Shown: piece after piece, positions 38,680 through 64,000 of the stretch
Position numbering within the stretch: position 1 is the stretch's first letter
How the letters are laid out: each line of letters starts with the position of its first letter
NCBI RefSeq assembly: GCF_006716425.1
Contig: NZ_VFOZ01000002.1
Location: 868,001 to 932,000, forward strand
Length of the DNA: 64,000 bases
Source of the DNA: Actinoallomurus bryophytorum
GTDB lineage: Bacteria; Actinomycetota; Actinomycetes; Streptosporangiales; Streptosporangiaceae
Reading direction: 5' to 3'
The notes under the pieces: model-generated
What the model was told of the DNA's origin: nothing
The model's database searches: none
Seen by the model: only the letters and a program-made list of their open reading frames with translations
Program-made: the position numbers and the translations under genes

Positions 38680-41457
38680 ATGAGCACACTCGAAAACGAC
38701 CTGCGCGGCACTCTCGAGGGCGAGGTCGACTTCTCCGTACGACGGCGGGCCGAGTACTCCTACGACGCGTCCGTGTACCGCCGCGTGCCTCTCGGCGTGG
38801 TGTTCCCCCGCACGACCGAGGACGTCGCCGCCGCGGTACGCGCGGCACGCGAGCACGACGTGGCGCTCACCACACGGGGCGCGGGCACGAGCATCGCGGG
38901 CAACGCCATCGGCGAGGGACTGGTCCTGGACCTCTCCCGCCACCTGAACCGCATCGTCGAGATCGACCCCGAGCGGCGGATCGCGCGAGTGCAGCCCGGC
39001 GTCGTCCTGGCCCGGCTCAACGCGGCCGCGGGCGCGTACGGGCTGCGGTTCGGCCCCGACCCGTCCTCGGGTAGCCGCTGCGTGCTCGCCGGCATGATCG
39101 GCAACAACGCCTGCGGGACCCGCGCGCTCGTCTACGGGCGCACCTCCGACAATGTCGAGTCGCTCGACGTCCTGCGCTACGACGGCACCTCGCTCACGGT
39201 CGGGGCGCACAAGGAGGAGACCGGCGACCCCCTGATCGAGGGGCTGCGGGCACTGCGCGACCGGCACCTGGGCACGATCCGCACGTCGCTGGGCCGGTTC
39301 CCCCGTCAGGTGTCGGGCTACGGGCTGGAGCACCTGCTCCCGGAGAACGGCTTCCACGTCGCACGTGCCCTCGTCGGTAGTGAGGGCACCTGCGCGCTGA
39401 CACTCGGCGCCACCCTGCGGCTCGTCTCCGAACCGGACACGAAGGTCCTCGTCATCGCCGGGTTCCCCGACTTCGTCGCGGCCGGCGAGGCCGTTCCGCG
39501 CGTGCTCACGCACGGGCCCAGCGCGTGCGAGGGGCTGGACGCGCAGATCGTCCAGATGGCGCGCGGCGCCGACCGCTCCGGGCTGCCGGACGGCACGTCC
39601 TGGCTGCTCATCGAGCTCACCGGGGACGACGCGGAGGATCGGGCGCGGACGCTGGCAGAGGAGTTCCCCGGGGCCCTGGTGGAGACCGACCCGGCCCGGC
39701 AGGCGGCGGTGTGGAAGATCCGCACGGACGGCGCGGGCCTGGCGACGCGGGCGCCGGACGGCTCGCAGGCCTGGCCCGGCTGGGAGGACTCGGCCGTCCC
39801 GCCGGACCGCCTCGGCGCGTACCTGCGTGACCTGCGCGAGCTGTTCGGCCGGTTCGGCGTGCACGGCGCCGCGTACGGGCACTTCGGCGAGGGCTGCCTG
39901 CACATCCGGATCGACTTCGACCTGGCGACCGAACGCGGCCGCGCGACGTTCCGCGAGGTCATCGTGGAGGCGACCCGACTGGTCGCCTCCCACGGCGGTT
40001 CGCCGTCGGGCGAGCACGGCGACGGGCGGGCACGCTCGGAGGTGCTGCCGCTGGTGTACGACGGCGAGACGATGCGGGCGTTCGCGGAGTTCAAGGGCGC
40101 CTGGGATCCGGACGGCCGGATGAACCCGGGGATCCTCGTCGACCCCGAACCCGTCGACGACCGCCTCCGTACGGAGGGCATGGCGCCGGCACCGCGCACG
40201 TTCCTGCCGTTCGCCGCGGACGGCGGCGACTTCCGGCAGGCGCTGCACCGCTGCGTCGGCGTCGGCAAGTGCCGCAGCGACCAGGGCGGCGTCATGTGCC
40301 CGAGCTACCGTGCCACGCGCGACGAGAAGGACTCCACCCGCGGACGGGCACGGGCGCTGGAGGAGATGCTCCGCGGCGACCTGGACACCGAGGGCTGGCG
40401 GTCGTCGTCGGTACACGACGCCCTGGACCTGTGCCTGTCGTGCAAGGGCTGCTCCTCCGACTGCCCGGTGAGCGTCGACATGGCGACGTACAAGTCGGAG
40501 TTCCTGCACCATCACTACCGGCGGCGGATCCGGCCGATGGCGCACTACTCGATGGGCTGGCTCCCGCTGTGGCTGCGGCTGGCCCGGGGGCCGCTCCGCG
40601 CCGCCTCCTCCCCCGGCCGTACCGCACGTGCCCTGGCCGGACTCGGCAAGCGTCTCGGCGGCGTGGCGCCCGAGCGCGACCTGCCCGCTCCCGCGCGCCG
40701 CCCCTTCACCCGCTGGTTCAGGCGGCGTACGGCCCCGGCCGGCGACCGGCCCCAGGTCCTGCTGTGGCCCGACACCTTCACCAACTACTTCACCCCCTCG
40801 GCGGGACGCGCCGCCGTACGGGTACTGGAGGACGCCGGGTACGAGGTGCTCGTCCCTTCCGCCAATGTCTGCTGCGGACTCACCTGGATGAGCACCGGAC
40901 AGCTGAAGGTCGCCCGCGACGTGGCCCGCCGTTCACTCGACGCCATCCACCCGTACGCCGCGCGCGGCATCCCGATCGTCGGCCTGGAGCCGAGCTGCAC
41001 CGCCGCGCTGCGCTCCGACTGGGAGAAACTGCTGCCGGACGATCCGCGCGTCGCGGACCTGCGGGTCCGCACGTTCGCCGAACTGCTCGAGGAGGCCGGC
41101 TGGTCGCCGCCCCACCAGCCGCGCAAGGCCATCGCGCAGATCCACTGTCACCAGTACGCCGAACTCGGCCAGGACGCCGACCTGCGCCTGCTCGCCAAGG
41201 CCGGGGTGGAGGTCGAGATCCCGGACGCCGGCTGCTGCGGGCTGGCCGGCAACTTCGGCTTCGAACGGGGCCACTACGACGTGTCAGTGGCGGTGGCCGA
41301 ACGCGTCCTCGCTCCTGCGGTGCGTAAGGCCGCGCCTGAGACGATCGTGCTCGCGGACGGGTTCAGCTGCCGCACCCAGATCGAACAGCTCACGGGCCGT
41401 ACGGCGGTCCACCTCGCCGAGGTCCTGCTGCCGCCGGAAGCGTCGTCCGAGCGGTGA
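38680..41457 (+). CDS. FAD-linked oxidase with C-terminal Fe-S and CCG domains (D-lactate/2-hydroxyacid dehydrogenase-like)
   Basis: A 925-residue protein. Domains in order: FAD-binding PCMH domain (about 35-260, TTRGAGTSIAGNAIGEGLVLDLSRH), FAD-oxidase C-terminal domain with EHGDGRARSEVLP, two 4Fe-4S motifs (CVGVGKCRSDQGGVMCPS and CLSCKGCSSDCPV), then two CCG-type segments (NVCCGLTWMSTG and DAGCCGLAGNFGFERG). This is the Dld-II/GlpC-like layout oxidising D-lactate or similar 2-hydroxyacids and passing electrons to the membrane pool. ATG 38680 is one codon after a GTG at 38677. The aldehyde dehydrogenase gene follows by 127 bases. Confidence 0.92.
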   Translation: MSTLENDLRGTLEGEVDFSVRRRAEYSYDASVYRRVPLGVVFPRTTEDVAAAVRAAREHDVALTTRGAGTSIAGNAIGEGLVLDLSRHLNRIVEIDPERRIARVQPGVVLARLNAAAGAYGLRFGPDPSSGSRCVLAGMIGNNACGTRALVYGRTSDNVESLDVLRYDGTSLTVGAHKEETGDPLIEGLRALRDRHLGTIRTSLGRFPRQVSGYGLEHLLPENGFHVARALVGSEGTCALTLGATLRLVSEPDTKVLVIAGFPDFVAAGEAVPRVLTHGPSACEGLDAQIVQMARGADRSGLPDGTSWLLIELTGDDAEDRARTLAEEFPGALVETDPARQAAVWKIRTDGAGLATRAPDGSQAWPGWEDSAVPPDRLGAYLRDLRELFGRFGVHGAAYGHFGEGCLHIRIDFDLATERGRATFREVIVEATRLVASHGGSPSGEHGDGRARSEVLPLVYDGETMRAFAEFKGAWDPDGRMNPGILVDPEPVDDRLRTEGMAPAPRTFLPFAADGGDFRQALHRCVGVGKCRSDQGGVMCPSYRATRDEKDSTRGRARALEEMLRGDLDTEGWRSSSVHDALDLCLSCKGCSSDCPVSVDMATYKSEFLHHHYRRRIRPMAHYSMGWLPLWLRLARGPLRAASSPGRTARALAGLGKRLGGVAPERDLPAPARRPFTRWFRRRTAPAGDRPQVLLWPDTFTNYFTPSAGRAAVRVLEDAGYEVLVPSANVCCGLTWMSTGQLKVARDVARRSLDAIHPYAARGIPIVGLEPSCTAALRSDWEKLLPDDPRVADLRVRTFAELLEEAGWSPPHQPRKAIAQIHCHQYAELGQDADLRLLAKAGVEVEIPDAGCCGLAGNFGFERGHYDVSVAVAERVLAPAVRKAAPETIVLADGFSCRTQIEQLTGRTAVHLAEVLLPPEASSER

Positions 41458-54017: not shown

Positions 54018-54884
54018 TCAGGAGGGGCGGCGCAGGTGGGCGAGGGCGTCCGCGAGAGAGATCTCGAAGTCGTCGCGGTCGGGGGCCCAGCGTTCGAAGA
54101 CCGCCGCGGCGGCGCGGGCGAGGTCGTCGGGCAGGCCGGCATCGCGGAACGTCGCGGCCCCCTCCTCCATCTCCGGCGCCCAGCGCCAGGCACGTGCCGC
54201 CGCGCTGGGCAGCCGCTCCGGCGCCGCGAGCTGAGAGAGGGTCAGCCGCCGCGCCTCGGTCATCAGCTCCTCGCCGACGCCGTGCGCCTCCGCGAGGGCG
54301 TGCGAGACCGCGGCGAGCGCGGCCGACGCCTTGTTGTAGGACCCGAACGCCATCTTGAGCGCCGACGCGCGCCCGACCTCGCCCTCGACGGCGACCGTCT
54401 CCACCGCCGTTCCGGTGAACAGCGCGGCGACCTCGGCGGCCCTGCGGGACTCACCCGAGAGGTAGAGCCGTGCACCGGCCGACGGCGAGGGTGGCGGCCC
54501 GATGACGCAGCCGTCCAGCGCGGCGTCGAACCGCGAGGCGATCCTCGCGGTGCGTGCCGGGCTGATGGCGTTCGCCTCGACGTACAGGCCGCCGAACCCG
54601 GCCCGCGCGACGGCGTCCGCGACCTCCTCGGCCGCGGCGGGCGGGCACAGCGAGATGATCAGATCACTCTCGGCGACCAGCGCCGCCAGATCGGGGACCG
54701 GATCGAGCCCCGCCTCCGCGGCCCGGCGCACGGTCGCCTCGCTCCGCCCGTCCCGGCACCAGACCACACGCGTACCGGCGCCGGCCAGCTCACGGCCGAC
54801 CGCCGCCCCCATCCGCCCCGGATGCACCAGACCGACCGTCACCACACGCTCACTCCCTGCTCCAACGCGTTCTCCTCCGGTCAT
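54018..54884 (-). CDS. DUF1932/6-phosphogluconate-dehydrogenase-like NAD(P) oxidoreductase
   Basis: A 288-residue beta-hydroxyacid-dehydrogenase-type protein: Rossmann start VVTVGLVHPGRMGAAVGREL, then SDLIISLCPPAAAEEVADAV, the substrate region GLYVEANAISPARTARIAS, catalytic Lys region ALKMAFGSYNKASAALAAVS and the C-terminal DUF1932 helical domain. It is translationally coupled to larC (ATGA overlap) and is the last gene of larB-larC-dehydrogenase, so it likely acts on a hydroxyacid handled by the nickel enzyme (inference). Confidence 0.88.
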   Translation of the reverse strand: MTGGERVGAGSERVVTVGLVHPGRMGAAVGRELAGAGTRVVWCRDGRSEATVRRAAEAGLDPVPDLAALVAESDLIISLCPPAAAEEVADAVARAGFGGLYVEANAISPARTARIASRFDAALDGCVIGPPPSPSAGARLYLSGESRRAAEVAALFTGTAVETVAVEGEVGRASALKMAFGSYNKASAALAAVSHALAEAHGVGEELMTEARRLTLSQLAAPERLPSAAARAWRWAPEMEEGAATFRDAGLPDDLARAAAAVFERWAPDRDDFEISLADALAHLRRPS

Positions 54885-56086
54885 GTCGTCGCTCCGGGTG
54901 TGTGCCCCCCGGCTGCGGCGCGTACCTCGGCGAGCACCTCGTGGACGGGACGGCCCGCCGCACGTGCCGCGGCGAGCGCCTCGTCGTACTCCGGCTGGAC
55001 CGTCACGACCCGGTCCCCGAGCAGCCCGCGCTTGACGCCGACCGTGGCACCCCCGGCCGGCACCTCGACGCGGTCGCGGCGGAGCGAGCGCCGCTCGACC
55101 GTGGAGATCCGCACACCGAGCGTGGTGGTCTGTTCGAAGACCACGCGGCACACGGTGTCGAGGCGTTCCGGGTCGACCAGGACGCTCAGGACCTGGCCGG
55201 GCCGGCCCTTGCGCATCAGCGCCGGCGAGCACCAGGCATCGGCGGCACCGGCCGAGCGCAGCGCCTCCAGGACCTCCGGCCACAGCCGCGGGTCGAGGTC
55301 GTCGATCGTGCTGTCCACCCGGCGCAGCTCCCCCGACTCCCAGCCGGCGGCGGCCGAGGACTCCCCCACCACCACGCGCAGGACGTTCGGATGCCCCTGT
55401 GGGTCGGCGGTCCCGGCTCCCGTCCCGACGGAGGCCGGAACGCAGTCGGGCACCGGGCCCCAGCCGGTGGCGAGCGTGGCGAGCAGGGCCGCGCCGGTCG
55501 GCGTGCAGAGCTCCATCGACGCGGGATGCGAGCGCAGGGGCGCGCCCGCCTCGGTCAGGAGCTCGAGCACGGCGGGCACCGGAACCGGCAGCGGGCCGTG
55601 CGCGGCGCGTACGACACCCGACCCGGCGGCCACCGGCGACACGACGCGGATCGCGGGTCCCAGCAGGTCCAGGGCGTGCAGCGCGAGCGCGCACCCGGTG
55701 ACGTCGGCGATCGCGTCCAGCGCGCCCACCTCGTGAAAGTGGATCTCGGGGACGTCCACGCCGTGCACCCGCGCCTCAGCCCGCGCCAGCCGCTCGAAGA
55801 CGGCCAGCGCGAAGTCCAGCGCGGGCGGCGGCAACGCGGCCGCCGACAGGATCGAGACGACGTCGGCGAGGTTCCGCGAGACGTGGTCGGCCGGTACGCG
55901 CACGTCCGCGTGCAGGGCGCGCAGGCCGTGCCGCCGCACCTGGTCCACACCGACGTCGAGGGGGCCGACGGCGAGGCCGGCCAGGCCCGAACGTACGGCC
56001 TCGAGGTCTGCGCCGGCGTCCAGCAGCGCCGCGAGCAGCATGTCGCCGGCCGCGCCGTTGCCGGCGTCCACCCAGAGCGTCCTCAC
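54881..56086 (-). CDS. larC: LarC, nickel-pincer-nucleotide cyclometallase
   Basis: A 401-residue LarC. The N-terminal part starts LWVDAGNGAAGDMLLAALLD; the mid region has EIHFHEVGALDAIADVTGCA with the conserved His residues, then CTPTGAALLATLA. The C-terminal part reads RKGRPGQVLSVLVDPERLDT. LarC inserts nickel into the pincer nucleotide. Here LarC1 and LarC2 parts are one unbroken frame, without the frameshift found in some species. GTG 56086 overlaps the larB stop (GTGA). Confidence 0.93.
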   Translation of the reverse strand: MRTLWVDAGNGAAGDMLLAALLDAGADLEAVRSGLAGLAVGPLDVGVDQVRRHGLRALHADVRVPADHVSRNLADVVSILSAAALPPPALDFALAVFERLARAEARVHGVDVPEIHFHEVGALDAIADVTGCALALHALDLLGPAIRVVSPVAAGSGVVRAAHGPLPVPVPAVLELLTEAGAPLRSHPASMELCTPTGAALLATLATGWGPVPDCVPASVGTGAGTADPQGHPNVLRVVVGESSAAAGWESGELRRVDSTIDDLDPRLWPEVLEALRSAGAADAWCSPALMRKGRPGQVLSVLVDPERLDTVCRVVFEQTTTLGVRISTVERRSLRRDRVEVPAGGATVGVKRGLLGDRVVTVQPEYDEALAAARAAGRPVHEVLAEVRAAAGGHTPGATT

Positions 56087-56784
56087 TCTGACGTCCCGGA
56101 GGTCCTGGCCGTCCTGCGCGCGATACGGGCGGCCGCGACCCCGGCACCGAAGCCGTTGTCCACGTTGACCGTCACGACCCCGGGCGCGCAGCTGTTCACC
56201 GTGGCGAGCCAGGCCGTGACGCCGTCGAGGTTCCAGCCGTAGCCGACGCTGGTCGGGACGGCGATCAGCGGCACGCCGACCAGGCCGCCGAGCACCGACG
56301 GCAGCGCCGCCTCCATGCCGGCGACCGCGACGACCACGTCGGCCTCGTTGATCCGGTCGAGCTGGGCCAGCAGCCGGTGCAGGCCTGCGACGCCGACGTC
56401 CACGATCTCGTCGGGCTCGGCGCCGAAGACACGGGTGGTCGTGGCGCACTCGCGTACGACGGGCAGGTCCGAGGTGCCGGCGGCGACGATCGCGACCCGG
56501 CCCTTCGTCTCGCGTTCGCCGAGCACCGCCGTACGGCCGACCGGGTCGAGCACGGCCTCCGGCAGCCGCTCGGCGCATTCGGCCATCGCGGCCTCGGACA
56601 GCCGCGTGGCGAGGATCGCGCCGCCCGGATGCGCCTCGTGCAGGGCTCGCAGCGCGGCCACGATCTGTGCCGGGGTCTTGCCCTGGCCGAACACGACCTC
56701 CGGATCACCGGTGCGTGCGGCGCGTGCGGTGTCCAGGCGGGCGAAGCCGAGATCGGTGACTCCATCAGGCTGAGATACCGTCAT
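56083..56784 (-). CDS. larB: LarB, nicotinate-adenine-dinucleotide carboxylase/hydrolase
   Basis: A 233-residue LarB of the AIR-carboxylase-like (PurE) fold: GFARLDTARAARTGDPEVVF, GQGKTPAQIVAAL, VAIVAAGTSDLPVVRECA and VAVAGMEAALPSVLGGLVGVPLIAVPTSVGYG. LarB carboxylates and hydrolyses NaAD as the first step of pincer-nucleotide synthesis. ATG 56784. Its 5' end and upstream region are duplicated at 58724-58810; this is the working copy. Confidence 0.95.
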   Translation of the reverse strand: MTVSQPDGVTDLGFARLDTARAARTGDPEVVFGQGKTPAQIVAALRALHEAHPGGAILATRLSEAAMAECAERLPEAVLDPVGRTAVLGERETKGRVAIVAAGTSDLPVVRECATTTRVFGAEPDEIVDVGVAGLHRLLAQLDRINEADVVVAVAGMEAALPSVLGGLVGVPLIAVPTSVGYGWNLDGVTAWLATVNSCAPGVVTVNVDNGFGAGVAAARIARRTARTSGTSE

Positions 56785-56976
56785 CGGAGTCCCTCGACTG
56801 ATACGTGTTGCATGGTGGACGTTGTGGTCCTCTCCGACGATCTACTGGCTGAAATGGCAGGCTACGGCAGAACGCTGGTGGCGTTCTCCGGCGGTGTCGT
56901 ACTCACCACGGCAACGCCCGCGCTCGGGACCGGCCAAATCGCCGCGGTATCGGCCGTCTCGCCGTCCCTGCCCGCC
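56726..56976. repeat. Left copy of the duplicated larB/larE junction
   Basis: This 251-bp stretch (larB 5' end, the short 27-base divergent spacer and the larE 5' end) recurs at 58724-58986, offset 1998. The first ~174 bp differ at only two positions; after that the left copy lacks 12 bp and shows many changes. The two copies flank about 1.75 kb of foreign DNA. Confidence 0.9.
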
Positions 56977-56985
56977 CTGAACTGA
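56812..56985 (+). pseudogene. Truncated larE remnant (57 codons)
   Basis: Starts exactly like larE (MVDVVVLSDDLLAEMAGYGR, then TLVAFSGGV) but a 12-bp deletion removes four residues of the PP-loop ATP site (GVDSSVV becomes GVV). It drifts and stops after 57 codons. No LarE function is possible. The intact larE is at 58810. Confidence 0.9.
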
Positions 56986-57103
56986 TCGCCCGGCCGCCCG
57001 CCGGTCAGGGTCTTCGCGCCGCCGCCCGCCGGCAACCCCCCGATCCGCAGCCACGGTCGTTGATCAGCGACCTGTACGCCCTGGGTGGCGTGTTCGCCGA
57101 GCT

Positions 57104-57564
57104 GTGGGATGTCGCGTCCGGCGTGTTGGACGGACCGGCTCGATGTCCCCTACGGATGCGGCGGGGAGACCACGTTCGACAAGGATGTGCTGGCGTTCGC
57201 TACCGGACGTGATCGCGGTCTCCCCCGACTACGATCGCCACCCTCAGTTGCGGCCGCGGTTCGACATGGTGCGGGCAAACCTGGCCGATACCGGGCCAGG
57301 TGCCGGAGTGACCCGGCCGGCCCTGCTCGACCTGGCGCTGACCCAGTACCTGACCGAGTGGCGTCTGTCCTTTGCCGCCCGCCTGCTGCGCGAGACCGAC
57401 GCCCGTTGGCGGTGATCGCGCGCCGGGTCGGTTACTCCACCGAATTCGCGCTGAGTCACGCTTTCCGCCGGGCGTACGGCGTTCCTCCCGGGCGCTTCCG
57501 CGTCATGGGCGATCCTTCGCCGGACAACCCGGCGGACGCGACCCGGCTCAACGCCGGGCGGTGA
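57104..57564 (+). pseudogene. AraC-family regulator fragment with frameshift
   Basis: Only the C-terminal DNA-binding part is recognisable: YLTEWRLSFAARLLRETDA in one frame, then, after a one-base shift near 57408, VIARRVGYSTEFALSHAFRR with AYGVPPGRFR in another. Together these are the two helix-turn-helices of an AraC protein. The N-terminal sensor part is missing or unreadable. It belongs to the DNA inserted in the larB/larE junction. Confidence 0.8.
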
Positions 57565-58342
57565 TGACGCGCGCGGTCGCCGGTAGGCGATATCCACCGG
57601 AGGGGGTCCGGTGCTCCTCGATCATGTCGGCCATCACTTCGCGCGCGCCGGCACGCTGACCGGCGCTGAGTGAGTCGAACAACGGCTTGAGCGCGCCGAA
57701 GCCGGCATCGAACTCCCACCACGCCTCAAAGTCCGGATACTCGGTCTCCCACTGAAACCACTCGGCTTCGATGTCCAGGAAACCCGCGTCCGTGAGGTAA
57801 CCCTCGAACGCACCAGGCCGCGCCGACTCGCTGAAGACCACCTCCATGTCGGGAACCGCACCCTCCGGAAGCAGCCGACGCAGCACCGACAGCCCGATCC
57901 GGGTGTACGGGCTGTCGGCCAGGTCACTCCAGGTAGCGATGCTCAGTGGCCCGCCGCGTCGTAGTATTCGGGCGGCCTCCCGTGCCACCACGTCGAACGG
58001 AGCCGTTCCGGGCAGGAACATCCCCATCCGGGAGATGATCGCGTCGACGCTGCCATCGGCGAGGTCAAGACCGGCCATCGACATCGTCCGGAACTCGACG
58101 GGCAGGTTCTGCGCGGCCGCACCGGCCCGCCCGGCATCCAAAACCGTGGGGTTGACATCGATCGCGGTGACCCGGAGATCGAGGCGGCGGCGGGCCAGCG
58201 CGAGGCTCAGCTCGCCGGTGCCACAGGCCAGTTGGACGACATGTGCGCCCTTCGGCAGACCTTCCACCGGAGCAAGCAACGGATCGGCCAGTCCGGCCAG
58301 CAGCCTCATGATGTTGGTAGACGCATCGTTTGCCGTAGACAC
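57548..58342 (-). CDS. Class I SAM-dependent methyltransferase on the inserted segment
   Basis: A 264-residue methyltransferase: VVQLACGTGELSLALARRR as the SAM loop (Ala-Cys instead of Asp/Gly-Cys), VTAIDVNPTVLDAGRA, DAIISRMGMFLPGTAPFDVV and RILRRGGPLSIATWSD. GTG 58342 (or 58345) has GGGGG about 9-13 bases upstream. It is the only intact gene on the insert; it overlaps the end of the AraC remnant by 17 bases. No known link to Lar function. Confidence 0.85.
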   Translation of the reverse strand: MSTANDASTNIMRLLAGLADPLLAPVEGLPKGAHVVQLACGTGELSLALARRRLDLRVTAIDVNPTVLDAGRAGAAAQNLPVEFRTMSMAGLDLADGSVDAIISRMGMFLPGTAPFDVVAREAARILRRGGPLSIATWSDLADSPYTRIGLSVLRRLLPEGAVPDMEVVFSESARPGAFEGYLTDAGFLDIEAEWFQWETEYPDFEAWWEFDAGFGALKPLFDSLSAGQRAGAREVMADMIEEHRTPSGGYRLPATARVITARR

Positions 58343-58723
58343 CACGGACGATCCCCCTGAGAAAAACACAACGTGCGGTCGGGTACAACGCGTCCATTGA
58401 ATCCGGTGTTCGGCCTCCTGAACCATGCTCCGATGACCGGCGACCATACGACTGCGCACCGCGGACGCCGCCACGAGGGACAATCCGTCCGTTGACGGAC
58501 CGGCTATGCCCTACAGCCTGAATCCGTGCTCCACGCCAATACGACACACAACGTCGGTGGCACAGCACGATGAGCGGTCAGCAGTCGCTCGACCCGGGGA
58601 GGACGATCTCAAGCCGGTTCGGGGACAGATCCGCGACCGGACGGGCCAGAATTTTCGGTAGGACGGCGCCCGGCATCGCTGAGCCGTGGACGTAGGCGAT
58701 CGTCCGGCCCACCCGGAGCTCGG
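58343..58723. other. Gene-poor end of the insert with a minus-strand C-terminal fragment
   Basis: These 381 bases hold no intact gene. On the minus strand 58578-58723 reads like a real protein end (GRTIAYVHGSAMPGAVLPKI, LARPVADLSPNRLEIVLPG) that is cut off exactly where the larB copy begins. It looks like a gene truncated at the insertion joint; I do not recognise the family. Confidence 0.5.
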
Positions 58724-58986
58724 GCGGTGTCCAGGCGGGCGAAGCCGAGATCGGTGACTCCATCAGGCTGAGATACCGTCATCGGAGTCCCTCGACTGAT
58801 AGGTGTTGCATGGTGGACGTTGTGGTCCTCTCCGACGATCTACTGGCTGAAATGGCAGGCTACGGCAGAACACTGGTGGCGTTCTCCGGCGGTGTCGACT
58901 CCAGTGTCGTCCTCGCCGCGGCGATGCGTGCTCTCGGCGCCGGTCAGGTCGCCGCGGTGACGGCCGTCTCGCCGTCGCTGCCCGCC
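58724..58986. repeat. Right copy of the duplicated larB/larE junction
   Basis: Carries the working larE start and a non-functional copy of the larB 5' end (in the old divergent orientation). See the left copy at 56726-56976. Confidence 0.9.
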
Positions 58987-59643
58987 GCCGAGCTGGAGGC
59001 CGCGCGGGAGTTCTGCGCGAGACTGGGTGTCACGCACCACACGCCGGCCACCGACGAGATGGACGTGGCCGGCTACCGGGAGAACGGCCCGCGGCGCTGC
59101 TACTTCTGCAAGAGCGTGCTGCTGGACACCGCGAACTCCCTCGCCGCCAAGCTCGGCTACGAGACGATCACCACGGGCACCAACGCGTCTGACGTCGCCG
59201 CCGGGTTCCGCCCCGGGATCAAGGCGGCGGCCGAGCGCGGCGCGCGCACCCCGCTCGCCGACGCCGGTCTGGACAAGGCGGCGGTGCGCGCCATCGCCCG
59301 CCACTGGGGACTGGCCGTCTGGGACAAACCGGCCGCCGCCTGCATGGCGAGCCGGGTCGCGTACGGAATTTCGGTCACACCCGCGCGGCTGGCCCGCATC
59401 GAACGGGCCGAAACAGCCGTCCGCAGCGCCCTCGGCGGCTCTGTCCGCGACCTGCGGGTCCGTGATCTCGGCGACGCCGTACGCCTTGAAATCGACTCTG
59501 ACCTGGTCGAACGCGCTCGCGACAACGGTGCGGTGAGCATCGCGATCCGCGAGGCGGGGTTCGACACCACCCCCATCAGGGTGGAGACATTCCGGTCCGG
59601 ATCCATGAACGACGTTCTGGCCGATTCGGATACGGGAGAATGA
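58810..59643 (+). CDS. larE: LarE, ATP-dependent sacrificial sulfur transferase
   Basis: A 277-residue LarE: the PP-loop LVAFSGGVDSSVVLAAAM binds ATP, ENGPRRCYFCKSVLLDTANS is the conserved first Cys region and KPAAACMASRVAYGISVTPARL carries the Cys equivalent to the sulfur donor of Lactiplantibacillus LarE. It adenylates the pincer precursor carboxylates and converts them to thiocarboxylates. Its length matches the family. The reductase gene follows within 100 bases. Confidence 0.94.
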   Translation: MVDVVVLSDDLLAEMAGYGRTLVAFSGGVDSSVVLAAAMRALGAGQVAAVTAVSPSLPAAELEAAREFCARLGVTHHTPATDEMDVAGYRENGPRRCYFCKSVLLDTANSLAAKLGYETITTGTNASDVAAGFRPGIKAAAERGARTPLADAGLDKAAVRAIARHWGLAVWDKPAAACMASRVAYGISVTPARLARIERAETAVRSALGGSVRDLRVRDLGDAVRLEIDSDLVERARDNGAVSIAIREAGFDTTPIRVETFRSGSMNDVLADSDTGE

Positions 59644-59736
59644 ACCAGACCTGAATTCGGTCGGACCCTCCCGGCCGTTGGTCACCGGACTCCCAGCCGT
59701 TAGTCTTGCCCGGTACAGCTCGCGACGGGACGGCTC

Positions 59737-62061
59737 ATGCCCACGATCGGAGATAGCCAGCGGATGACGCCAGACCGACCTGAGTTCCGTCGTCTCGACA
59801 GCTCACACCTTCTGCTGACCGGCGCCACCGGCTTCCTCGGGCAGGCGACGCTCGAGAAGCTCCTGTCCTCCTATCCGGGAGTGCGGGTCTCGGTGCTGAT
59901 CCGGCCGAGGCCGGGCCAGCCCGCACAGCGCCGCTTCGACGGCCTGCTCCGCAAGCCCGTCTTCCGCCGGCTGCGCGAGAAGATCGGCGAGGAGGAGCTG
60001 CGCCGCATCGCGGCCGAGCGCGTCAATGTCATCGAGGGCGACCTGGGCGAGGTCACCTTGCCGGGCGACCTCGACGTGGTGATCCACGGCGCGTCCACGG
60101 TCTCCTTCGACCCGCCCATCGACGAGGCGTTCCGCACCAACGTCTCCGGCGTCGTGACCCTGTACGAGGCCCTGCACAAGGCAGGCGCCGACCCGCACGT
60201 CGTGCACGTGTCCACGGCCTACGTCGCCGGGGTGCGCAAGGGCGTCGTGCCGGAGGACCGCCTCGACCACACCGTCGACTGGCGCACCGAGCTGTCCGGC
60301 GCGCTGGCCGCCCGCACCGACGTCGAGCGCGACTCGCGCCGGCCCGAGGTGCTGCGCAAGTCGATGTCGCGCGCCCAGGGCGAGCACCGCAAGGCGGGCC
60401 CCCAGTCGGTCGTCTCGGCCGCCGAGGAGGCCCGGCAGGAATGGGTGACCGACCGCCTCGTCGACTACGGCCGCGCACGCGCGCAGAGCCTCGGCTGGCC
60501 GGACGTCTACACCTTCACCAAGGCGCTGGGCGAGCGTGCGGCCGAGGAGATGTGGGGCGAACGCCGGCTGTCCATCGTCCGGCCGGCCATCGTCGAGAGC
60601 TCGCTGCGCCACCCGTACCCGGGCTGGATCGACGGCTACAAGATGGCCGACCCGCTGATCATCGCGTACGGGCGCGGCGTCCTGCCGGAGTTCCCGGGCC
60701 TGCCCGACAGCGTGGTCGACATCATCCCGGTCGACCTGGTCGTCAACGCGACCCTCGCGGTCGCCGCAGCCCCGCCCGAGGTGGGCACCACCGGTTACTT
60801 CCACGTCGGCTCCGGCTCGCGCAACCCGCTGCCCTTCCGCAGCCTGTACGAGAACGTCCGCGCCTACTTCCAGCGGCACCCGATGCCGGCCGGCGAGCGC
60901 GGCCACGTCCAGGTGCCGGTGTGGCGGTTCCCCGGCGCCCGCCAGGTCGAGATGATGCTGAGCGGCAGCGAGCGCGCCACCTCGATGGCCGAGCGTGCGC
61001 TGCTGCGGCTGCCCGCCTCGGCCAAGACCCGCGACTGGATGACGGCGGTGCACCGGCAGCAGTCCAACCTGGACTTCCTGCGCCGCTACTCCGATCTCTA
61101 CCAGGCCTACACCGCGGCCGAGGTCATCTACGACGACAGCCGCACCAACGCGCTGCACCGCCTGATCCCGGCCGACCTGGCCGAGGAGGACGGCTTCGAC
61201 CCGTCGGACATCGACTGGGCGCACTACCTGCAGGAGGTGCACTCCCCCAGCGTCACCGAGCTGATGCGCGGCTTCTCGCGCAGCCGCGGCGGCAGCAGGC
61301 GCACGGTCACTCCCTCGCTGCCGGAGCGCACCGACGTCGCGGCCGTGTTCGACCTCGAGGGCACGATCGTCGCCTCCAACCTGATCGAGTCCTATCTGTG
61401 GGCCCGCATGTCGTCGCTGCCGCGGTCCCAGTGGAGCGGTGAGCTCGCCGACCTGGCCCGCTCGCTCCCCAAGTACCTGCGGGCCGAGCGCCGCGACCGC
61501 GGCGACTTCGTCCGCGCGTTCCTGCGCCGCTACGAGGGCGCCGGCATGGACGAGCTGCGCGACCTCGTGGACGACGTCCTCGGCGACGCCCTGCTGCAAC
61601 GCGTCATGCCCGAGGCCGTACGCCGGATCCGCGCCCACCGCGCCGCCGGGCACAAGACCATCCTGATCACCGGCACCGTGGACGTGTTCGTCCGGCCTCT
61701 CGCGGGCCTGTTCGACGAGGTCGTCGCGAGCCGGATGCACACCCGCGACGGCGTGCTCACCGGCTATCTGGACTCCCCGCCGCTGGTCGACGAGGCACGC
61801 GCCGCCTGGCTGCGCCGCCACGCGAGCGACACGGGCATCGACCTGGAGGGCTCGTACGCGTACGCGGACAGCTACTCCGACCGGCCGCTGCTGGAGGCCG
61901 TGGGCACCCCCGCGGCGGTTAACCCGGACCCGTCGCTGTACCGCCACGCCAAGCGCAAGCACTGGCGCATCTACGAATGGGGCACTCACACCCGTGGACG
62001 CGGAGACGTGCTGATCGACACTATCGGGACCCTCAAGAACGGAGCGGTGAGCGCCCGATGA
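59737..62061 (+). CDS. Fused fatty-acyl-reductase-like SDR and HAD-IB phosphatase
   Basis: A 774-residue two-domain protein. The N-terminal male-sterility/FAR-type extended SDR has the NAD(P) loop LLLTGATGFLGQATLEKLL (about residue 28) and the YTFTK active site (about 258). The C-terminal HAD-IB domain begins AAVFDLEGTIVASNLIE (Asp539; the second Asp of DxD is Glu541), then ITGTVDVFVRPLA and AYADSYSDRPLLEAVG. It might reduce an acyl thioester or acid to alcohol and cleave a phosphate. Its stop overlaps the alcohol dehydrogenase ATG by four bases. Start 59737 or 59764; neither has an ideal ribosome site. Confidence 0.85.
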   Translation: MPTIGDSQRMTPDRPEFRRLDSSHLLLTGATGFLGQATLEKLLSSYPGVRVSVLIRPRPGQPAQRRFDGLLRKPVFRRLREKIGEEELRRIAAERVNVIEGDLGEVTLPGDLDVVIHGASTVSFDPPIDEAFRTNVSGVVTLYEALHKAGADPHVVHVSTAYVAGVRKGVVPEDRLDHTVDWRTELSGALAARTDVERDSRRPEVLRKSMSRAQGEHRKAGPQSVVSAAEEARQEWVTDRLVDYGRARAQSLGWPDVYTFTKALGERAAEEMWGERRLSIVRPAIVESSLRHPYPGWIDGYKMADPLIIAYGRGVLPEFPGLPDSVVDIIPVDLVVNATLAVAAAPPEVGTTGYFHVGSGSRNPLPFRSLYENVRAYFQRHPMPAGERGHVQVPVWRFPGARQVEMMLSGSERATSMAERALLRLPASAKTRDWMTAVHRQQSNLDFLRRYSDLYQAYTAAEVIYDDSRTNALHRLIPADLAEEDGFDPSDIDWAHYLQEVHSPSVTELMRGFSRSRGGSRRTVTPSLPERTDVAAVFDLEGTIVASNLIESYLWARMSSLPRSQWSGELADLARSLPKYLRAERRDRGDFVRAFLRRYEGAGMDELRDLVDDVLGDALLQRVMPEAVRRIRAHRAAGHKTILITGTVDVFVRPLAGLFDEVVASRMHTRDGVLTGYLDSPPLVDEARAAWLRRHASDTGIDLEGSYAYADSYSDRPLLEAVGTPAAVNPDPSLYRHAKRKHWRIYEWGTHTRGRGDVLIDTIGTLKNGAVSAR

Positions 62062-63254
62062 TCCTCGCGCTCGAATACCACCGGTCGCCGGGCCGGTTCA
62101 TCGCCGCTCGCAGCCTGACCGCCACCAAGCTCGGCGGGCGCATGAGCGGCATGATCGCCGGCAACGTCTCGCCGCTGCGCCTGATCAACCGCCAGGCGCC
62201 CGAGCTGCCCGGCGAGGGCTGGACCCGGGTGACGCCACGGCTGTCCGGCATCTGCGGCTCCGACCTCGGGCTGCTGACCGGGCGTTCCTCCCCGTACCTG
62301 TCCCCGATGACCTCGATGCCGTTCGTCCCCGGCCACGAGGTCGTCGGCGAGACCCAGGACGACCTGCCCGGCATGCCCAAGGGCACGCGGGTGGTCATGG
62401 ACCCGGTGCTGTCCTGCGTCGCCCGCGGCACCCCGGAGTGCCGTTGGTGCGCGTCGGGCCATCAGAGCCGCTGTGACCACATCACCACCGGCCGCATCTC
62501 GGCCGGCCTGCAGACCGGCAGCTGCGCCGACACCGGCGGCGGCTGGAGCCGGCAGTTCGTCGCGCACGCCAGCCAGCTGCACGCGGTGCCGGACGAGCTT
62601 CCGGACGAGCGCGCGGTGCTGGCCGAGCCACTCGCCTGCGCGGTCCACTCGGTACGCCGCGTGAAGGTCGCGCCCGGTTCCACCGCAGTGATCATCGGGG
62701 CGGGCACCGTCGGCCTGCTCACGCTGCTGGCGCTGCGCGAGCTCACCGAGGTCGGTGCGGTGTACGTCGTCGCCAAGCACGGTCACCAGCAGGAGAAGGC
62801 CAAGGCCCTGGGCGCGACCGCGGTCATCGAGCCGCGCAAGGCGATCCGCGCGCTGCGGCGCGTCACGGCCGCGCGGATGCACACGCCCGAGATCGGCGGC
62901 GACTTCCTGCTGGGCGGCGTCGACGTCGCCTTCGAGTGCACCGGCGGTTCGAGCGGCCTGGACACCTCGCTGCGGCTCGTACGCGCGGGTGGCACGGTCG
63001 TCGTGTCCGGCATGCCGAACGGCGGGGTCGACCTGACGCCTCTGTGGTACCGCGAGCTGGAGCTCGTCGGGGCCTACTGCTCCGGCGCCGACGGGGCGGA
63101 CTTCGCCGACGCCATCAGGCTCGCCGGCACCGCGCCCCTCGACGGTTACGTCGGTACGACCTATCCCCTCGCCCGCTGGCGCGAGGCCATCAACCACGCT
63201 GCCGATGCGGGACGTCTCGGCACCGTCAAAGTCGCCTTTGATCCGGCCCGTTAG
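62058..63254 (+). CDS. Zinc-dependent medium-chain alcohol dehydrogenase
   Basis: A 398-residue MDR dehydrogenase: catalytic zinc site SGICGSDLGLLTG and VPGHEVVGE, a modified structural zinc region (CVARGTPECRWCASGHQSRC) and the NAD(P) fold AVIIGAGTVGLLTLLALREL. It is coupled to the SDR-HAD gene (ATGA) and 11 bases from the LarA homologue. It probably interconverts an alcohol or hydroxyacid in the same pathway (inference). Confidence 0.9.
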   Translation: MILALEYHRSPGRFIAARSLTATKLGGRMSGMIAGNVSPLRLINRQAPELPGEGWTRVTPRLSGICGSDLGLLTGRSSPYLSPMTSMPFVPGHEVVGETQDDLPGMPKGTRVVMDPVLSCVARGTPECRWCASGHQSRCDHITTGRISAGLQTGSCADTGGGWSRQFVAHASQLHAVPDELPDERAVLAEPLACAVHSVRRVKVAPGSTAVIIGAGTVGLLTLLALRELTEVGAVYVVAKHGHQQEKAKALGATAVIEPRKAIRALRRVTAARMHTPEIGGDFLLGGVDVAFECTGGSSGLDTSLRLVRAGGTVVVSGMPNGGVDLTPLWYRELELVGAYCSGADGADFADAIRLAGTAPLDGYVGTTYPLARWREAINHAADAGRLGTVKVAFDPAR

Positions 63255-63265
63255 GAAGGTTACGA

Positions 63266-64000
63266 GTGAGCAGACCAGGCTTCGTACTCGACGTGGATGA
63301 GCGGACTCCACCGCTGCTCATGCACCAGGGTGAGGGCTTCCGGCTGGAGCGGTTGCCGCTCGGGGCGAAGGTCATCTACCCGCCGGACTCCCTGCCCGGG
63401 ATCCGGAACGTCGACGCCGCCATCCGGCACGCGCTGCTCAACCCGCACGGCACCGAACCGCTCCCCGAGCTGCTGACGCCCGGGATGCGGCTGACCATCG
63501 TCTTCGACGACCTGTCGCTGCCGCTGCCACAGATGCAGACACCGGACGTACGCCAGCGCATCATCGAGCAGGTGCTCGAGATGGCCGCGGCCAAGGGCGT
63601 CGACGACGTGGAGCTGATCGCGGGCAACGCGCTGCACCGCCGGATGACCCCGGCCGAGCTGAGGCGCACCGTCGGTGACCGCGTCTTCCAGGCGTTCTTC
63701 CCCGAGCACCTGAAGAACCATGACGCGGAAGACCACGACAACCTCCTGCACATGGGCAAGACCAAGCACGGTGAGGACGTCGAGATCAACCGTCGGGCCG
63801 CCGAGAGCGACCTGATCGTCTACGTCAACATCACGCTCACCGCGATGAGCGGCGGGTCCAAGTCGGTCTCGGTCGGCCTGGCGAGCTACAAGAGCCTCAA
63901 GCACCACCACAACGTGCACACGCTTCGGCACTCGAACTCCTTCAACGACCCGCCGAACTCCGCGATGCACCACTCGTACGACCGGATGAAGGGCGTGATC
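63266..64000 (+). CDS. LarA homologue (nickel-pincer-nucleotide enzyme), 3' end cut by the window edge
   Basis: The first 245 residues of a DUF2088/LarA family protein. FDDLSLPLPQMQTPD corresponds to the DxTRPxP-type region, AGNALHRRMTPAEL holds a conserved active-site His, and MSGGSKSVSVGLASYKS (Lys199) matches the GG-K segment whose Lys carries the NPN thioamide in LarA. His residues follow in LKHHHNVHTLRH. LarA homologues racemise or epimerise 2-hydroxyacids and related compounds; this one departs from true lactate racemase in several motifs, so another substrate is likely. GTG 63266 follows AGGAAGG. Confidence 0.88.
   Translation, partial: MSRPGFVLDVDERTPPLLMHQGEGFRLERLPLGAKVIYPPDSLPGIRNVDAAIRHALLNPHGTEPLPELLTPGMRLTIVFDDLSLPLPQMQTPDVRQRIIEQVLEMAAAKGVDDVELIAGNALHRRMTPAELRRTVGDRVFQAFFPEHLKNHDAEDHDNLLHMGKTKHGEDVEINRRAAESDLIVYVNITLTAMSGGSKSVSVGLASYKSLKHHHNVHTLRHSNSFNDPPNSAMHHSYDRMKGVI

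What the first reader, a model, noticed from the sequence alone, without database searches (positions are those of the whole stretch)
54018..64000. Nickel-pincer-nucleotide locus wired to a reductase/phosphatase fusion and two dehydrogenases
larB, larC and larE make the NPN cofactor and a LarA homologue is the likely user. Instead of plain lactate metabolism, the homologue sits in one transcript with a zinc alcohol dehydrogenase and an SDR-HAD fusion, and larC is coupled to a DUF1932 dehydrogenase. The enzymes suggest hydroxyacid epimerisation by nickel hydride chemistry combined with carboxyl/thioester reduction, dephosphorylation and alcohol oxidation. I know of no described pathway with this set.
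Basis: partly seen in the sequence, partly recalled or inferred. Interest (0 to 1): 0.78.

Follow-up and report, generated by a model that had tools for sequence, protein, structure and literature searches.

The report
Nickel-cofactor enzyme in a lipid operon
A conserved actinobacterial operon ties a member of the nickel-cofactor lactate-racemase family to fatty-alcohol-making and glycerol-phosphate-acylating enzymes, which suggests that this rare cofactor takes part in making membrane lipids, possibly ether lipids.

Summary
The genes are real and the linkage is very tight, but the hydroxyacid-pathway reading is probably wrong. The LarA homologue belongs to LarAH14/15/16. It keeps the NPN-lysine, the Ni-histidine and one catalytic histidine; the second histidine and the arginine that in a LarA relative binds the substrate carboxylate are gone (0 of 150 homologues keep either). 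The next gene, just outside the window, encodes a PlsC acyltransferase. In 296 Actinobacteriota genomes, 71 of the 72 with this LarAH also have the FAR-HAD fusion. FAR-HAD and MDR lie upstream of LarAH in 56 of 61 sampled loci. In Rubrobacteraceae no PlsC was found beside it; glycerol-3-phosphate acyltransferase PlsY precedes FAR-HAD instead (17 of 17 loci). Rubrobacterales reportedly carry about 46% ether-linked core phospholipids (PMC10821996 passage); of 23 operon-bearing Rubrobacteraceae genomes, 23 lack the Ger/PlsA-type domain PF09989 and 22 an AGPS-like protein. Best reading: a glycerophospholipid pathway, probably for alkyl ethers, with the NPN enzyme working at glycerol carbon 2. The lipid context is well supported; product and chemistry are inferred. 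DUF1932 beside larC is not conserved.

The parts
59737..62061 (+). FAR-HAD fusion: fatty acyl-CoA/thioester reductase (NAD_binding_4, residues 27-339, with a FAR-like C-terminal part to about 520) fused to a HAD-IB phosphatase domain (535-733)
   Evidence: Pfam/NCBIfam; PDB 7eoz fatty acyl-CoA reductase over residues 21-519, E 5.8e-49; Tyr and Lys of the YxxxK motif in 123 of 123 aligned sequences
62058..63254 (+). zinc-dependent MDR dehydrogenase, polyol/secondary-alcohol dehydrogenase type; its ATG overlaps the FAR-HAD stop
   Evidence: PDB relatives include ketose reductase, butanediol, L-idonate 5- and sorbitol dehydrogenases; C65 and E189 in 130 of 130, C119, C127, C130 and C138 in 124 of 130 each
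63266..64000 (+). LarA homologue, LarAH14/15/16 family, N-terminal 245 of 525 aa; the gene ends 843 bases beyond the window (L006:11267-12844)
   Evidence: Full length 921.8 bits vs NF052592, cut-off 740; AlphaFold2 mean pLDDT 95.5; Foldseek best matches are the single-His LarA structures 9q3k and 9q3j
58810..59643 (+). larE, sacrificial sulfur transferase of NPN synthesis
   Evidence: TIGR00268 276.5 bits, cut-off 150
56083..56784 (-). larB, NPN synthesis
   Evidence: NF033503 252.3 bits, cut-off 175
54881..56089 (-). larC, NPN nickel insertion (start approximate)
   Evidence: Ni_insertion 391.7 bits; LarC1 and LarC2 domains over cut-off
56977..58809 (.). insert between larB and larE: methyltransferase gene 57548-58354(-) and a possible AraC-type fragment 57085-57564(+); not part of the system
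   Evidence: In L041-L043 the larB and larE matches are 27 bp apart; methyltransferase; HTH_18 27.3 bits, below its cut-off of 33.6
56812..56976 (+). remnant copy of the larE 5' end (84% identical to the intact larE start), 27 bp from larB
   Evidence: (G000:C2:924812-924976), sequence read
54018..54887 (-). DUF1932 dehydrogenase overlapping larC; not conserved with the system
   Evidence: Pfam; no DUF1932 match in 160 other loci, 32 of which include larC

Best explanation
The operon FAR-HAD / MDR / LarAH / PlsC (PlsY in Rubrobacteraceae), served by larB, larC and larE, is a glycerophospholipid-modifying pathway whose likeliest product is an sn-1 alkyl-ether (plasmanyl) glycerolipid. Inferred steps: (1) PlsY or PlsC acylates a glycerol phosphate; (2) the FAR domain reduces a fatty acyl thioester to the fatty alcohol; (3) the NPN-loaded LarAH takes a hydride from glycerol C2 of the acylated glycerol phosphate, giving a bound acyl-DHAP-like ketone that is activated at C1, the fatty alcohol replaces the acyl group, and the hydride is returned from the same face; one catalytic histidine suffices because nothing is inverted, so LarAH would replace AGPS; (4) MDR reduces or recycles the ketone form; (5) PlsC acylates sn-2 and HAD may dephosphorylate. 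Shown here: gene content, linkage, co-occurrence, active-site losses, association with larC, and lack of AGPS-like and PF09989 (Ger/PlsA-type) genes in nearly all operon-bearing Rubrobacteraceae tested. Inferred: the ether product and steps 1-5.
For: Co-occurrence: FAR-HAD in 71 of 72 genomes with this LarAH over cut-off and in 7 of 224 others, 4 of those 7 having LarAH14 fragments below cut-off. FAR, HAD and MDR upstream on the same strand within 6.5 kb in 56 of 61 sampled loci and 70 of 72 nearest-relative loci with room. Pairwise distances of LarAH, FAR and MDR correlate at r 0.89-0.90 over 115 loci. PlsC next door with HX4D and PEG.R motifs conserved; PlsY 23-149 bp upstream of FAR-HAD on its strand in 17 of 17 Rubrobacteraceae loci that show FAR (one copy tested, over its TIGR00023 cut-off). 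FAR matches 7eoz. Rubrobacterales have about 46% ether-linked core phospholipids (PMC10821996 passage); PF09989 in 0 of 23 (rings in 4 of 14 controls, Thermotoga maritima among them) and an AGPS-like protein in 1 of 23 Rubrobacteraceae genomes with the operon LarAH. FAR, acyltransferase and HAD also occur together in the Myxococcus elb ether-lipid operon (PMC9131029 passages). LarC in 34 of 40 genomes whose only Lar_N protein is this one, against 70 of 160 genomes without any LarAH14 hit.
Against: 25 of 72 operon genomes, the window's among them, also have an AGPS-like protein, so there AGPS could do that step. PlsY in Rubrobacteraceae could be the housekeeping copy kept there by ancestry within one family. 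Three genomes have FAR-HAD without any close LarAH (G040, G064, G259), one of them only 62% complete. Nine of 72 genomes lack a LarC match and seven of those have no LarB over cut-off either, four of the seven at least 90% complete, so NPN dependence is not universal on this evidence. No NPN enzyme is known to me to do substitution chemistry.
Confidence: 0.42

Rival explanations
1. A lipid pathway, but not for ether lipids: FAR makes a fatty aldehyde or alcohol, LarAH and MDR act on a polyol or long-chain hydroxy intermediate (for instance a 1,2-diol or 2-hydroxyacyl unit), and PlsC/PlsY esterify it.
For: Same gene content. PDB relatives of MDR include polyol and ketose dehydrogenases. The related single-His LarAs lie near carbohydrate genes (PMC12611868, parts 1-3 of 5 read).
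Against: PlsY is a glycerol-3-phosphate acyltransferase family (TIGR00023), which favours a glycerol phosphate backbone; the Rubrobacterales ether lipids would then need a separate, unknown enzyme.
Confidence: 0.25
2. One reading: LarAH racemises or epimerises a 2-hydroxyacid, and the other enzymes reduce, dephosphorylate and oxidise it.
For: Membership in the LarA superfamily, whose characterised activities in the parts read are C2 inversions of 2-hydroxyacids (PMC7583248).
Against: Position of R75 is L/I/C/V in 150 of 150, position of H174 is N/T/S in 150 of 150 in the MAFFT alignment. LarAH14 from Frankia was inactive in all seven activities listed. Lipid acyltransferases are in the operon.
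Confidence: 0.12
3. LarAH inverts glycerol C2, so that the operon makes glycerolipids with sn-glycerol-1-phosphate (archaeal) stereochemistry or a mixture.
For: The superfamily's chemistry is stereo-inversion; PlsY and PlsC can use both glycerol phosphate enantiomers (title and passages of PMC13400652); the stereochemistry of Rubrobacterales ether lipids was not determined (PMC10821996 passage).
Against: Inversion by the accepted mechanism needs two catalytic histidines and this family has one; it would not explain why FAR is always present.
Confidence: 0.08
4. LarAH no longer uses NPN (a scaffold or another metalloenzyme), and larBCE serve the other LarA in the genome.
For: Seven of 72 genomes with LarAH have neither a LarC match nor LarB over cut-off (one of the seven, G160, has a weak partial LarC match, E 3.9e-4). 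The window's genome has a separate LarA over the NF033504 cut-off.
Against: K199 and H215 (NPN lysine and Ni ligand) are invariant in 150 of 150. 34 of 40 genomes with this LarAH as the only Lar_N protein keep LarC. Missing genes in draft genomes can explain some exceptions.
Confidence: 0.1

Closest known systems
LarAH14/15/16 family (NCBIfam NF052592; groups 14-16 of Desguin et al. 2020, PMC7583248)
   Same: Full-length match far over the cut-off; a Frankia LarAH14 was purified and inactive in the seven activities listed (Table 1).
   Different: No substrate is given in the parts read (1-3 of 6). The paper's gene-context table (Table S1) could not be read here, so part of the linkage may already be listed there. 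A lipid interpretation was not in the parts read.
Single-histidine LarA of Streptococcus plurextorum and Blautia wexlerae (9q2u/9q3k, 9q3j; PMC12611868)
   Same: Closest solved structures by sequence and fold; Asp73, His115, Lys195, His211, Tyr307 and His401 have counterparts by the alignment.
   Different: 24% identity in the structural alignment; Lys76 is replaced by L/I/C/V and His306 by Pro; carbohydrate rather than lipid gene neighbours.
Lactiplantibacillus LarA lactate racemase
   Same: Fold; H108, K184 and H200 counterparts.
   Different: No R75, no H174; unrelated operon partners.
Myxococcus elb operon (ElbD FAR-ACS-ACP-acyltransferase, ElbB HAD) and MXAN_1674-1676
   Same: Fatty acyl-CoA reductase, acyltransferase and HAD in one operon; ElbD shown to be needed for normal ether lipid levels (review passages).
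   Different: No LarA-type protein is mentioned in the passages read and ElbC is of unknown function; here there is no acyl-CoA ligase or ACP domain and FAR is fused to HAD.
AGPS (alkyl-DHAP synthase) and Ger/PlsA routes to ether lipids
   Same: Candidate product class.
   Different: Different enzymes; AGPS-like found in 1 of 23 and PF09989 in 0 of 23 operon-bearing Rubrobacteraceae genomes.

Membership tests
LarAH14/15/16 (NF052592) | Whole-protein score over the curated cut-off of 740 bits | tested here: met
   921.8 bits
LarA superfamily as NPN enzyme | NPN-binding Lys184 and Ni-ligand His200 counterparts | tested here: met
   K199 and H215 in 150 of 150 operon homologues
LarA superfamily as NPN enzyme | Actual NPN binding | not testable with these tools
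   Only co-occurrence with larC: 63 of 72 genomes
2-hydroxyacid racemase/epimerase (canonical LarA) | Two catalytic histidines, H108 and H174 | tested here: not met
   H124 present in 150 of 150; position of H174 never His
2-hydroxyacid racemase/epimerase (canonical LarA) | Arg75, binder of cofactor phosphate and substrate carboxylate | tested here: not met
   L 111, I 31, C 7, V 1 of 150
2-hydroxyacid racemase/epimerase (canonical LarA) | Lys298 | tested here: inconclusive
   Alignment of the C-terminal domain is uncertain (canonical row has gaps at P356 and Y357); consensus PYNVNSIMNPILV holds no Lys
Fatty acyl-CoA reductase (FAR) | NAD_binding_4 domain, YxxxK motif and full-length similarity to a solved FAR | tested here: met
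   Y258 and K262 in 123 of 123
PlsC acyltransferase | HX4D and PEG.R motifs | tested here: met
   117 of 117 for H91, D96, P166, E167 and R170, 116 of 117 for G168
HAD-IB phosphatase | DxDxT nucleophile motif and downstream acidic motif | tested here: inconclusive
   D19 in 134 of 135, the second acid is D in 71 and E in 63, D195 in 135; TIGR01490 over cut-off
Ether-lipid pathway | Ether lipids in a carrier, without the known enzymes | tested here: inconclusive
   Rubrobacterales per PMC10821996; AGPS-like in 1 of 23, PF09989 in 0 of 23; lipids of the window's organism unknown
ElbD system | FAR-ligase-ACP-acyltransferase multidomain protein | tested here: not met
   FAR is fused to HAD only

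The most novel reading that the evidence does not exclude
The nickel-pincer cofactor works in membrane-lipid synthesis: a one-histidine LarA relative borrows the hydride of glycerol C2 to swap an acyl for an alkyl chain (an AGPS replacement), giving aerobic actinobacteria such as Rubrobacter a previously unrecognised route to ether lipids. As far as I know it would be the first NPN enzyme acting on a non-hydroxyacid and the first doing a net substitution.
Probability: 0.22. Interest if true: 0.93.

Novelty: new variant of a known kind. Interest (0 to 1): 0.74.

Why it matters
Two open questions meet here: what the single-histidine, substrate-unknown branch of the nickel-pincer family does, and how Rubrobacterales make their abundant ether lipids when PF09989 (Ger/PlsA-type) and AGPS-like genes are missing from nearly all the genomes tested. 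The operon gives a concrete, small set of genes to delete and to express. If right, it extends organometallic NPN chemistry from small hydroxyacids to membrane lipids and adds an aerobic, bacterial ether-lipid route, which bears on the 'lipid divide' and on lipid biomarkers. Even if the ether part is wrong, a near one-to-one co-occurrence of LarAH14 with a fatty acyl-CoA reductase fusion in a phylum-wide sample fixes the functional area of this enzyme.

Tried and rejected
Rejected: lactate or 2-hydroxyacid metabolism as the theme (active site, operon partners). Rejected as part of the system: DUF1932 (no match in 160 other loci, 32 of which include larC) and the methyltransferase and possible AraC fragment (insert absent in L041-L043). 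Considered: an ElbD-like alternative in Rubrobacteraceae. Many of these genomes have further strong NAD_binding_4 proteins; I read two of them (G011 and G195). Both look like an AMP-ligase/carrier/reductase protein beside a transporter, not an ElbD; these names come from reading the sequence, not from a family search, and the others were not read. Considered: AGPS in Rubrobacteraceae; in four genomes all 12 FAD-oxidase_C proteins are at most 30% identical to AGPS-like L224, whose best PDB match is AGPS, and each is closer to glycolate/D-lactate-dehydrogenase-like proteins of the set (PDB search run for one of the 12); an AGPS-like protein was then found in 1 of 23.

Led nowhere: Rfam and tRNA scans of the window (nothing); promoter/terminator scan (not above shuffles); several literature searches; plasmid search with LarAH (9 records, only partial, distant matches). 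Distribution outside Actinobacteriota could not be tested. No tree of the LarA superfamily was built.

Limits: the 80 loci are the best 80 of at least 574 and so biased to near relatives; that set and the 71 sampled loci overlap in genomes. PlsC absence in Rubrobacteraceae is by tblastn with one query and a divergent copy could be missed. Fisher tests are not corrected for phylogeny. In one search two loci count as lacking PlsC only because their LarAH match is truncated (L044, L190; PlsC is there); L069 and L121 (contigs of the same length) lack it with 1.6 kb of room. Of nine sub-cut-off loci, seven gave sequences long enough to align. That family f19 is Rubrobacteraceae rests on three of its 23 members.


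Full report
Observation. The window is C2:868001-932000 of a 9.47-Mb genome, whose nearest named relatives at this locus are Actinomadura and Actinoallomurus. I extended the locus past the window end. The LarA homologue is 525 aa (L006:11267-12844), and a PlsC acyltransferase gene begins inside its stop codon (L006:12841-13806). FAR-HAD and MDR overlap in the same way. So the unit is larE - FAR-HAD - MDR - LarAH - PlsC on the plus strand, with larB and larC diverging from it.

What the LarA homologue is. It scores 921.8 bits against NF052592 (LarAH14/15/16, cut-off 740) and only 65-90 bits against four other LarA-type models. AlphaFold2 gives mean pLDDT 95.5 and Foldseek places it nearest to two LarA relatives with a single catalytic histidine (9q3k, TM-score by query 0.78; chains of 9q3j, 0.70-0.72). 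Residue by residue, the counterparts of D72, H108, K184 and H200 are invariant in 150 operon homologues, whereas R75 is L, I, C or V and H174 is N, T or S in the MAFFT alignment; in the HMMER alignment the H174 loop is simply four residues shorter. In a LarA relative that arginine binds the substrate carboxylate, and the second histidine is needed for inversion (PMC12611868, parts 1-3 of 5 read). A LarAH14 from Frankia was inactive in seven activities (PMC7583248 Table 1; parts 1-3 of 6 read); Frankia loci in my set carry this same operon (L075, L077, L079), though I did not see which Frankia gene was tested. The window's genome also encodes a separate LarA over the lactate-racemase cut-off (L038), so the larBCE products have two possible clients.

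Conservation of the linkage. Query A1 found at least 574 relatives in named genomes, of which the best 80 were kept. In 70 of 72 of these with enough upstream sequence, FAR, HAD and MDR lie upstream on the same strand within 6.5 kb; the two exceptions (L073, L074) lack an MDR match. As an unbiased set I used 296 genomes drawn evenly from the phylum: 72 have this LarAH over cut-off. For the 71 besides the window's own I fetched the surroundings. FAR, HAD and MDR are upstream in 56 of the 61 with room. The exceptions are one locus without an MDR match (L153) and four Rubrobacteraceae loci with the parts further away or elsewhere (L159, L160, L165, L187). Searching the same 296 genomes for FAR-HAD gives 78 genomes: 71 of the 72 LarAH genomes and 7 others. 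Four of the 7 hold LarAH14 fragments below cut-off (G095, G138, G141, G287); G040, G064 and G259 do not. Distances between LarAH, FAR and MDR sequences correlate at r 0.89-0.90 over 115 loci. A related subfamily below the cut-off (35-40% identity, L192-L200) has none of this arrangement; the only hit among its neighbours is a weak HAD match on the other strand of L193. So the linkage marks one clade.

NPN. 63 of the 72 genomes have LarC. In 40 genomes this LarAH is the only protein with a Lar_N domain, and 34 of these have LarC, against 70 of 160 genomes without any LarAH14 hit. This says the cofactor is probably made for this enzyme. Against it, nine genomes lack a LarC match and seven of these have no LarB over cut-off, four of the seven being at least 90% complete. 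I cannot tell gaps in drafts from real independence of NPN.

Lipid context. The reductase half matches a solved fatty acyl-CoA reductase over nearly its whole length (7eoz). PlsC matches a 1-acyl-glycerol-3-phosphate acyltransferase (5kym) with conserved motifs. In the sample, PlsC directly follows LarAH in 41 of 65 loci with room (42 counting L190, whose LarAH match is truncated); of the 23 without it, 22 belong to one family, f19, and the other is L121. Three f19 genomes are Rubrobacter: 6-kb stretches of G195 and G076 match the plasmids of R. tropicus and R. indicoceani at 100%, and a contig of G237 has the length of the R. marinus plasmid. In this family a PlsY gene lies 23-149 bp upstream of FAR-HAD on its strand in 17 of 17 loci where FAR-HAD is visible, and in none of the other loci searched; the one copy tested is over the PlsY model's cut-off. 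A protoglobin-like gene lies between MDR and LarAH in the two loci read (L162, L164; family checked in L164). So a glycerol-phosphate acyltransferase belongs to the unit in both versions.

Ether lipids. PMC10821996 (passage) states that Rubrobacterales contain about 46% ether-linked phospholipids among core lipids, citing Sinninghe Damsté 2023; that paper is not held and I saw only its title. I asked whether known routes could explain this. The domain PF09989, which I recall as part of Ger/PlsA and which rings in 4 of 14 control genomes, Thermotoga maritima among them, is in 0 of the 23 f19 genomes with the operon LarAH. An AGPS-like protein, sought with a query whose best PDB match is AGPS, is in 1 of those 23 at E 1e-40 or better. 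Other strong NAD_binding_4 proteins occur in many of them; the two that I read are not ElbD-like. The operon is therefore the best candidate I can find for the missing pathway. The Myxococcus elb operon likewise joins a FAR, an acyltransferase and a HAD protein (PMC9131029 passages). Against this, 25 of the 72 operon genomes, the window's included, do have an AGPS-like protein.

Mechanism. The step needing a special catalyst is exchange of the sn-1 acyl for an alkyl group. In animals AGPS does this on acyl-DHAP, where the C2 ketone activates C1 (established knowledge). A cofactor that takes and returns a hydride could create that ketone transiently from acyl-glycerol-3-phosphate. Hydride leaving and returning on one face needs one acid/base histidine and no carboxylate-binding arginine, which fits what this family kept and lost. 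This is inference; no step of it was tested.

Novelty. The family is already named (NF052592) and the lack of H174 in groups 14 and 15 is noted in print (PMC12611868). In the listings and passages that I had I found no link of a LarA relative to lipid synthesis. The supplementary gene-context table of PMC7583248 was not readable and may list some of these neighbours.

Noticed in passing
56812-58809: A roughly 2-kb insert between larB and larE, with a decayed copy of the larE 5' end left 27 bp from larB and an intact larE beyond: larE seems to have been duplicated or replaced by recombination.
   Followed up: partly
L038:1462-2754 (G000:C1:5125213): A second, canonical LarA over the lactate-racemase cut-off in the same genome; by sequence it keeps both catalytic histidines.
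   Followed up: partly
L040 (G000:C2:341884-342366): A third Lar_N match (74 bits), not characterised further.
   Followed up: no
L224:673-2250 (G000:C1:5974254): An AGPS-like protein (best PDB match alkyl-DHAP synthase, E 1.6e-93) in the window's genome; 25 of 72 operon genomes have one.
   Followed up: partly
L164:10416-11069, L162: A protoglobin gene between MDR and LarAH in two Rubrobacteraceae loci (family checked in L164); an oxygen-related role in the pathway is conceivable.
   Followed up: partly
59737-62061, HAD part: The second acid of the HAD nucleophile motif is Glu in 63 and Asp in 71 of 135 sequences, and an Arg (R168 of the domain) is invariant where I would expect the motif III Lys (assignment from recall).
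   Followed up: partly
L192-L200: A LarAH subfamily at 35-40% identity, sharing the active-site losses in the seven sequences aligned but without the lipid operon: a second function to find.
   Followed up: no
window 39433-40131 (G000:C2:907433-908131): A large FAD-oxidase_C protein, by sequence of the FAD/FeS D-lactate or glycolate dehydrogenase type, lies in the same window.
   Followed up: no
G106, G263, G294, G084: Genomes at least 90% complete with the operon LarAH but with no LarC match and no LarB over cut-off.
   Followed up: partly
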